Origin: Desulfomonilia bacterium
GTDB taxonomy: Bacteria > Desulfobacterota > Desulfomonilia > UBA1062
Reading direction: 5' to 3'
DNA length: 64,000 bases
Assembly (NCBI GenBank): GCA_036567785.1
Contig: DATCTV010000034.1
Span: 228,468 to 292,467 of the forward strand
Below, piece after piece: positions 54,913 to 56,750 of this stretch. Under the pieces are notes generated by a model, which saw nothing but the letters and a program-made list of their open reading frames with translations, did no database searches and had not been told where the DNA came from. A program made the translations under genes and the position numbers. Every line of letters starts with the position of its first letter. Position 1 is the first letter of the stretch.

Positions 54913-55752
54913 TTATGACGGCTTCCTTGCATAAAGTTTTATGCTCGTAACCGTTGAATTTAGCCTCTTTAATTCAGCCTTATCAAGATTCAAAGAACCG
55001 GCGGCTTCCTTTACGACAGGATCGCTTTCGATGAGATCAAAGGGGAAGCTCGTTTCGTCCATTATCTTTATATCAATGAAACCAGCCTGTTCGACCGCCT
55101 TGAGATAATCATCCTTGAGCATTGCACCCGCAACACAGCCTGCATAGGCTTCTATGGAATTCCTGACAACCTCAGGAAGTTCTTCCAGAAGTACCATATC
55201 CGACACCATGAGTCTGCCGCCCGGCTTGAGGACCCTGAAGGCCTCTCTGAATACCTGGGGCTTGTCGGTCGAAAGGTTTATGACGCAGTTTGAAATGATA
55301 ATATCGCCTGTGGCGTCTGCAACCGGCAGATGCTCGATCTCGCCAAGCCGGAATTCGACATTTTTATATCCGCCGGTGGCTGCGTTGTTTCGCGCCTTTT
55401 CCAGCATCTCGGCCGTCATGTCGATGCCGATGACTCTCCCGGTATTACCTACCTTGGCCGAAGCAAGAAAACAGTCGAACCCCGCGCCTGAGCCGAGGTC
55501 GATAACGGTCTCGCCTTCTTTGAGCGAAGCAAGGGCCACCGGGTTTCCGCAGCCCAGCCCGAGATTGGCGCCTTGAGGAACGGAATCCATGTCTTCACTG
55601 GTGTATCCGATTCTAGAGCTTACGGTTTCCGCAGTTAACGTTCCCTGGCAACAGGACGATGCCGAGCAGCATGATGCCTGTTTCCCGGCTGATTTGGCTA
55701 TGGCGCCGTATTTCTCCCTGACTACCCTTTTGATTTCCTGATCGTTATTCAT
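54913..55752 (-). CDS. arsM: arsenite S-adenosylmethionine methyltransferase
   Basis: The 279-residue protein has the ArsM pattern: an N-terminal Cys-rich segment (S-C-C-S-A-S-S-C-C), a SAM fold with D-L-G-S-G-A-G-F-D, and the two As(III)-binding Cys in S-N-C-V-I-N-L and Y-A-G-C-V-A-G-A. Arsenite is bound by three cysteines and methylated. It is 16 bases after the Cys-rich AbrB-like gene, with a good AGGAGA site. Confidence 0.92.
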
Positions 55753-55768: not shown

Positions 55769-56041
55769 TTATTTGGCAAAATTTCCCATGACCGGACCCA
55801 GAAAGTTCTGAACATGCTCAGCCAGATTGTCTGCCTTCATTAAAGCCAGGCAGCAGACCTCACCATCCTTTTGAAAACTTATGAGGGCAAGCTTGTCGCC
55901 AGCCTTTATGCCGGCCCTTTCCCTAAGCTCCTTTGGAAGGACCATCTGACCGCGCTCATCGACAGGCAAAAGGGACTCGACCCTGCAGCAGCTTTGTTCC
56001 CCCTGGCCGCAACAGCCTGAACCAGTTTTTGATTTCGCCAT
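55769..56041 (-). CDS. Cys-rich AbrB/SpoVT-fold protein, HgcAB-associated type
   Basis: This 90-residue protein has a Cys-rich N-terminus (G-S-G-C-C-G-Q-G and Q-S-C-C-R-V), then the AbrB-like core L-L-P-V-D-E-R-G-Q-M-V-L-P-K-E-L-R-E-R-A-G-I-K-x-G-D. It resembles short proteins annotated as HgcAB-associated; no hgcA or hgcB is in the window. It may be a metal-responsive transcription factor for arsM, but that is inference. The start at 56041 has AAAGGAG; 20 extra upstream codons are open but lack support. Confidence 0.78.
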   Translation of the reverse strand: MAKSKTGSGCCGQGEQSCCRVESLLPVDERGQMVLPKELRERAGIKAGDKLALISFQKDGEVCCLALMKADNLAEHVQNFLGPVMGNFAK

Positions 56042-56072
56042 GACAAAACTCCTTTCATAATTTCCTATTATT

Positions 56073-56101
56073 CTGATAAGACTGATATAACTGATTGTCA
56101 A
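56073..56101 (-). promoter_or_regulatory. promoter of the arsM operon with repeated TATCAG motifs
   Basis: TTGACA (56101-56096) and TATCAG (56078-56073) are separated by 17 bases. Three TATCAG copies and an AGACT/AGTCT inverted repeat surround the boxes, a likely operator. The upstream stretch 56102-56350 holds no gene I can support. Confidence 0.5.
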
Positions 56102-56350: not shown

Positions 56351-56662
56351 TCAACAGCTGCAAGTATCTCCGCAACCGCCTCCAGACGGCAGAGCCGATG
56401 TGAGCTGAAAGCCGGACCCTTCGGGAGTATCGATAAACTCGATTTTTATGGGGTTGGCTTTTTGATACAGTTCGGCGTCTATGACAAATTTTATGTCCTG
56501 CTCGATTAAAATAACATCCAGTTCTTGCGGCTCATCCAGAGCCATGCCCAGTCTGGGCCCGCCTCAACCGGCCTGAAGATACAATCTGATGGCCAGGGGT
56601 TCCTTCTGTTTTTTTAAAAAATCCTTGATCATGTTGCCTGCAATTTCCGTAACTTCTAGCAT
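56351..56662 (-). CDS. HesB/IscA-like selenoprotein with in-frame UGA
   Basis: The 103-codon gene starts at ATG 56662 with GGAGGAAAT just upstream. It reads L-E-V-T-E-I-A-G-N-M, then I-R-L-Y-L-Q-A-G, then UGA (56566-56564), then G-G-P-R-L-G-M-A-L-D-E and a C-terminal G-G-G-C-G-D-T-C-S-C. IscA/HesB proteins have Cys at the UGA position, so the UGA almost certainly encodes selenocysteine, as in the known HesB-like selenoproteins of deltaproteobacteria. A conventional call sees only the 64 codons after the UGA. It follows the acyl-CoA synthetase gene by 88 bases; a TATAAT lies in that gap. A role in Fe-S or metal handling is likely. Confidence 0.87.
56529..56543 (-). promoter_or_regulatory. candidate bacterial SECIS stem-loop
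   Basis: In mRNA orientation the hairpin is GGCUC, loop UGGAU, GAGCC, beginning 21 bases after the UGA. The loop has G at its second position, as bacterial SECIS elements require. A second possible hairpin (GCCCA/UGGGC) lies between it and the UGA. Confidence 0.55.
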
Positions 56663-56750
56663 ATTTCCTCCGAAGATGGTTTTCCTGATTCTGTTTAAAA
56701 TTATTATATGCCTGTGCTTTATCTATAGACTCAAAATCGGCTGGTCTATA

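What the first reader, a model, noticed from the sequence alone, without database searches (positions are those of the whole stretch)
56351..56662. IscA/HesB-like selenoprotein gene that automatic callers would truncate
An in-frame UGA at 56566-56564 occupies the position of the first conserved Cys of the IscA family, with matching sequence on both sides, a strong ribosome-binding site at the real start and a SECIS-like hairpin downstream. HesB-like selenoproteins are known, so this is a member of a rare class; the genome should encode SelA/B/C/D.
Basis: partly seen in the sequence, partly recalled or inferred. Interest (0 to 1): 0.65.

Follow-up and report, generated by a model that had tools for sequence, protein, structure and literature searches.

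The report
HesB-like selenoprotein gene with covarying SECIS
This is a genuine gene for a small selenium-containing protein of the iron-sulfur carrier (IscA/HesB) fold, read through an in-frame stop codon; it is a new member of a well-known family that is common in the bacterial phylum it comes from.

Summary
The minus-strand gene 56662-56351 encodes 103 residues with UGA as codon 33. It passes the curated NCBIfam model for IscA/HesB selenoproteins (NF038090, 95.8 bits, cut-off 85). The genome carries selC (UCA anticodon), selA, selB and a selD that is itself Sec-encoded. Of 150 related gene copies with a Sec or Cys motif, 115 have UGA at this codon and 35 have Cys. The SECIS is the hairpin GGCUC-UGGAU-GAGCC at 56543-56529, 25 nt after the UGA. 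It covaries (GGUUC/GAACC, GGUCC/GGACC, GGCCC/GGGCC), pairs fully in 112 of 115 Sec genes but 1 of 35 Cys genes, and far exceeds a synonymous-codon null. A second nearby hairpin is not conserved. The predicted fold is IscA. The family is already described and common (167 of 395 sampled genomes of the phylum pass the cut-off), so the gene is ordinary as a finding; its biochemical function is unknown. One lead: in several relatives the gene sits beside arsenic genes (arsR, a Sec-containing arsM, acr3, arsC), and here arsM lies 604 bp away. The linkage recurs but only in a minority of loci.

The parts
56351..56662 (-). HesB-like selenoprotein gene, 103 residues plus TGA stop
   Evidence: NF038090 95.8 bits over cut-off 85; homologues read through the same TGA
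56564..56566 (-). in-frame UGA, selenocysteine codon 33 (motif UGGP)
   Evidence: 115 Sec and 35 Cys homologues at this codon
56529..56543 (-). SECIS hairpin GGCUC-UGGAU-GAGCC, loop at 56538-56534
   Evidence: pairs in 112 of 115 Sec genes and 1 of 35 Cys genes, compensatory changes, codon null 4.5 against 90 observed; MFE -9.1 kcal/mol
56663..56673 (-). ribosome-binding site region TCGGAGGAAAT before the ATG
   Evidence: read directly
55769..56101 (-). neighbour: AbrB-type protein matching the HgcC model
   Evidence: NF040962 120.6 bits, cut-off 70; the genome has no HgcA match
54913..55752 (-). neighbour: arsenite methyltransferase ArsM, Cys form
   Evidence: NF008823 363 bits, cut-off 263; 604 bp from the selenoprotein gene

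Best explanation
The gene encodes a HesB-like selenoprotein. UGA codon 33 is decoded as selenocysteine by SelB and tRNA-Sec, directed by the hairpin GGCUC-UGGAU-GAGCC 25 nt downstream, which lies inside the coding sequence for Met-Ala-Leu-Asp-Glu-Pro. The product has the IscA/SufA (A-type carrier) fold, with Sec where these proteins have their first ligand Cys and a flexible C-terminal CGxxCxC tail. Supported by computation: the recoding signal, the machinery, the family and the predicted fold. Inferred: Sec33 and the tail cysteines together bind a thiophilic ligand (an Fe-S cluster, iron or a metalloid) or form a selenenylsulfide in a redox or carrier role. The actual substrate is not known for the family.
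For: Curated family match; selA, selB, selC and a Sec-encoded selD in the genome; 115 homologues with the same UGA; SECIS covariation specific to Sec genes that meets published bacterial SECIS constraints; IscA/SufA as best structural and sequence matches in the PDB; invariant residue 33, C97, C101, C103.
Against: No expression, protein or selenium data. The Cys tail is modelled with low confidence (pLDDT below 50), so its closeness to Sec33 is not shown. The protein is below the cut-offs of TIGR01911 and of the general IscA models.
Confidence: 0.96

Rival explanations
1. The selenoprotein belongs to an arsenic or metalloid handling module in this lineage, with Sec33 and the Cys tail binding As(III) or methylated arsenic. 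This is a functional refinement of the best explanation and not an alternative to selenocysteine insertion.
For: Ars-type genes within about 6 kb in 10 of 67 neighbourhoods, including an ArsR next to the gene and a Sec-containing ArsM in two members of the same taxonomic family, and acr3, thioredoxin and CcdA (arsC in one) in the two closest named relatives. arsM plus acr3 without the window genome: 5 seen, 0.26 expected.
Against: 57 of 67 neighbourhoods have no such gene. The counted copies are not all independent: one genome gives two, and one acr3 is cut by the edge of the stretch. No published HesB-arsenic link was found in the held library.
Confidence: 0.2
2. The TGA is a sequencing error or a pseudogene mutation in an ordinary Cys-type HesB protein.
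For: Cys homologues exist (35 of 150).
Against: The same TGA with the same conserved hairpin occurs in 115 distinct homologues, and Cys genes lack the hairpin. The frame is under coding constraint on both sides of the TGA.
Confidence: 0.01
3. The real gene is the short 64-residue ORF from the ATG at 56545, or a truncated 32-residue peptide is the product.
For: A table 11 ORF list gives the 64-aa ORF.
Against: The start, RBS and residues 1-32 are conserved in all aligned homologues, and the fold needs the N-terminal helix and first strands.
Confidence: 0.02

Closest known systems
IscA/HesB family selenoprotein, NCBIfam NF038090 (related model TIGR01911, HesB-like)
   Same: Whole-length match over the curated cut-off, Sec at the same position, UxGP motif as listed for the HesB-like family in PMC13188914.
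   Different: Nothing of substance; TIGR01911 is matched only below its cut-off (40.7 against 66.35 bits).
A-type Fe-S carriers IscA, SufA, ErpA
   Same: Predicted fold and position of the first ligand residue.
   Different: Sec for Cys; tail CGDTCSC; far below the equivalog cut-offs (23-35 bits against 117-181).
HesB-like selenoprotein of Methanococcus maripaludis
   Same: Named as the same family and distantly related to IscA; shown by 75Se labelling and mutagenesis in work cited by PMC11097638.
   Different: Archaeal, so a different SECIS system; no sequence comparison was made here.

Membership tests
HesB-like selenoprotein (NF038090) | Score over the curated cut-off | tested here: met
   95.8 bits, cut-off 85
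HesB-like selenoprotein (NF038090) | In-frame UGA at the first conserved Cys, UxGP motif | tested here: met
   UGGP at residue 33; motif listed in PMC13188914
HesB-like selenoprotein (NF038090) | Bacterial SECIS: loop 3-9 nt, stem 4-16 bp, G in the first two loop positions, spacing 16-37 nt, MFE at most -7.5 | tested here: met
   5 nt, 5 bp, G at position 2, 25 nt, -9.1 kcal/mol; covariation
HesB-like selenoprotein (NF038090) | Host encodes SelA, SelB, tRNA-Sec and SelD | tested here: met
HesB-like selenoprotein (NF038090) | Selenium present in the protein | not testable with these tools
   needs 75Se labelling or mass spectrometry
IscA / SufA / ErpA Fe-S carrier | Equivalog model cut-offs | tested here: not met
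   23-35 bits against cut-offs of 117-181
IscA / SufA / ErpA Fe-S carrier | A-type carrier fold | tested here: met
   best PDB matches IscA and SufA, TM 0.66-0.77
IscA / SufA / ErpA Fe-S carrier | Binds and transfers an Fe-S cluster | not testable with these tools
   needs purified protein

The most novel reading that the evidence does not exclude
In this lineage the HesB-like selenoprotein is part of an arsenic (or related metalloid) handling module with ArsR, ArsM (itself sometimes a selenoprotein) and ACR3. That would give this orphan selenoprotein family a first testable function, with Sec33 and the Cys tail as metalloid ligands.
Probability: 0.2. Interest if true: 0.5.

Novelty: new member of a known kind. 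Interest (0 to 1): 0.25.

Why it matters
The gene adds a well-supported member to a known selenoprotein family and pins down its SECIS by covariation, so that the hairpin can be recognised and tested. The recurring arsenic-gene neighbours offer a concrete hypothesis for a family whose function is still unknown.

Tried and rejected
Sequencing error or pseudogene: rejected by 115 homologues with the same TGA. The upstream GCCCA/UGGGC hairpin as SECIS: pairs in only 13 of 115 and lies too close to the UGA (10 nt). The Rfam scan of the window found only a tRNA-Gly. A link to mercury methylation through the neighbouring HgcC-like protein: no HgcA in the genome. Read-through of the terminal TGA: no support, since homologues end at or near this Cys tail with no conserved sequence after it. 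The plasmid search gave only weak 31-32% matches in Priestia. The careful phylogeny did not finish; only a quick tree was used.

Full report
What is there. The minus-strand frame 56662-56351 starts with ATG behind TCGGAGGAAAT and encodes 103 residues with TGA as codon 33, followed by a TGA stop. A conventional ORF list shows only the 64 residues from the ATG at 56545. The protein matches NF038090 (IscA_HesB_Se) at 95.8 bits, cut-off 85. It falls below the cut-offs of TIGR01911, TIGR00049, ErpA, IscA and SufA. Pfam-A gives no match at E 0.01.

Machinery. The genome (3.96 Mb, 97% complete) has a tRNA-Sec with UCA anticodon, selB, selA and a selD with an in-frame UGA in the motif GAGUACKI. A second, divergent HesB-like gene with its own TGA lies on another contig.

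Relatives. Of 148 related genomes 78 have a homologue. Of 395 genomes sampled across the phylum 213 have a match to NF038090 at E 1e-8, and 167 pass its cut-off. Among 150 distinct copies with a recognisable Sec or Cys motif, 115 have TGA and 35 a Cys codon; 16 further copies did not fit the motif and were left out of the counts, most of them Sec and five with Trp. In a quick tree the Sec and non-Sec states are intermixed, with at least 11 changes forced by well-supported branches. This agrees with the Sec/Cys exchange described for the family (PMC1794560).

SECIS. The MFE fold of the region shows two hairpins. Only the second, GGCUC-UGGAU-GAGCC at 56543-56529, is conserved. It pairs fully in 112 of 115 Sec genes (90 by Watson-Crick pairs alone) and in 1 of 35 Cys genes. 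With amino acids kept and codons redrawn from the same genes, 4.5 of 115 are expected (maximum 13 in 500 draws). The first hairpin pairs in 13 of 115. Where the protein has Val for Ala (GTT), the partner Glu codon is GAA; where the stem reads GGTCC or GGCCC, the partner is GGACC or GGGCC. In a 19-row subset four of five pairs change on both sides, and 0 of 500 shuffles reach the observed covariation score. I chose that subset to cover the stem variants, so the full-set counts are the unbiased ones. The hairpin meets the published bacterial SECIS constraints (PMC13188914): loop 5 nt, stem 5 bp, G at loop position 2, spacing 25 nt, MFE -9.1 kcal/mol.

Fold. AlphaFold2 on 46 homologues gives pLDDT 85 and pTM 0.74, with the last nine residues below 50. 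The best PDB matches are IscA and SufA, and a profile search finds the same family. Invariant columns include residue 33, G35, P36, C97, C101 and C103. A ligand-binding or redox role for Sec33 with the tail cysteines is an inference from this.

Neighbourhood. Downstream on the same strand are an AbrB-type protein that matches the HgcC model and an ArsM; the genome has no HgcA match. Of 67 neighbourhoods compared, ten have ars-type neighbours. L051 and L052 have acr3, a SaoE/SO_0444-like permease below cut-off, a thioredoxin and a CcdA-like protein, and L051 also an ArsC-like protein below cut-off ('CcdA-like' is my reading of the sequence, since NCBIfam gave no match). L201 and L208 have a permease, ArsR and ArsM, and this ArsM carries an in-frame UGA at its UISG/UIAG site. 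L202, L210 and L211 have an ArsR-type regulator just upstream; L194 and L197 have acr3. In 59 genomes there are 43 arsM and 40 acr3 copies, so 0.26 copies are expected in the sampled stretches without the window genome, against 5 seen. The p value printed there is optimistic, because one genome gives two copies and one acr3 is cut by the edge of the stretch. Most neighbourhoods (57 of 67) show no such gene, so the link is a lead and not a general property of the family. Literature searches found no HesB-arsenic link in the held library. [quoted passage not shown]

Verdict. The family is known and common; what is added is a new member, a covariation-supported SECIS and the arsenic-gene lead.

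Noticed in passing
L106, L107, L109, L119, L125 (L106 minus strand, codon TGG in GGATGGAGAGGT): A well-supported clade of five homologues (f2 genomes) has Trp (TGG) in place of Sec and sits inside a Sec clade in the quick tree; in L106 the SECIS stem and the Cys tail are both changed. It looks like loss of Sec by TGA to TGG.
   Followed up: partly
L201, L208: ArsM beside the HesB-like gene is itself a selenoprotein (UISG/UIAG site), whereas the window ArsM has Cys (CVAG).
   Followed up: partly
L046/L098, L105, L126, L129, L133, L134, L138, L140, L143, L144, L189: Several genomes carry a Sec and a Cys copy of the HesB-like gene close together.
   Followed up: no
L062; G000:C7:11345-11629 (-): The window genome has a second, divergent HesB-like gene with an in-frame TGA (32% identity), below the NF038090 cut-off (58 against 85 bits).
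   Followed up: partly
window 55769-56101 (-): HgcC-like (HgcAB-associated) AbrB protein next to arsM in a genome without an HgcA match.
   Followed up: partly
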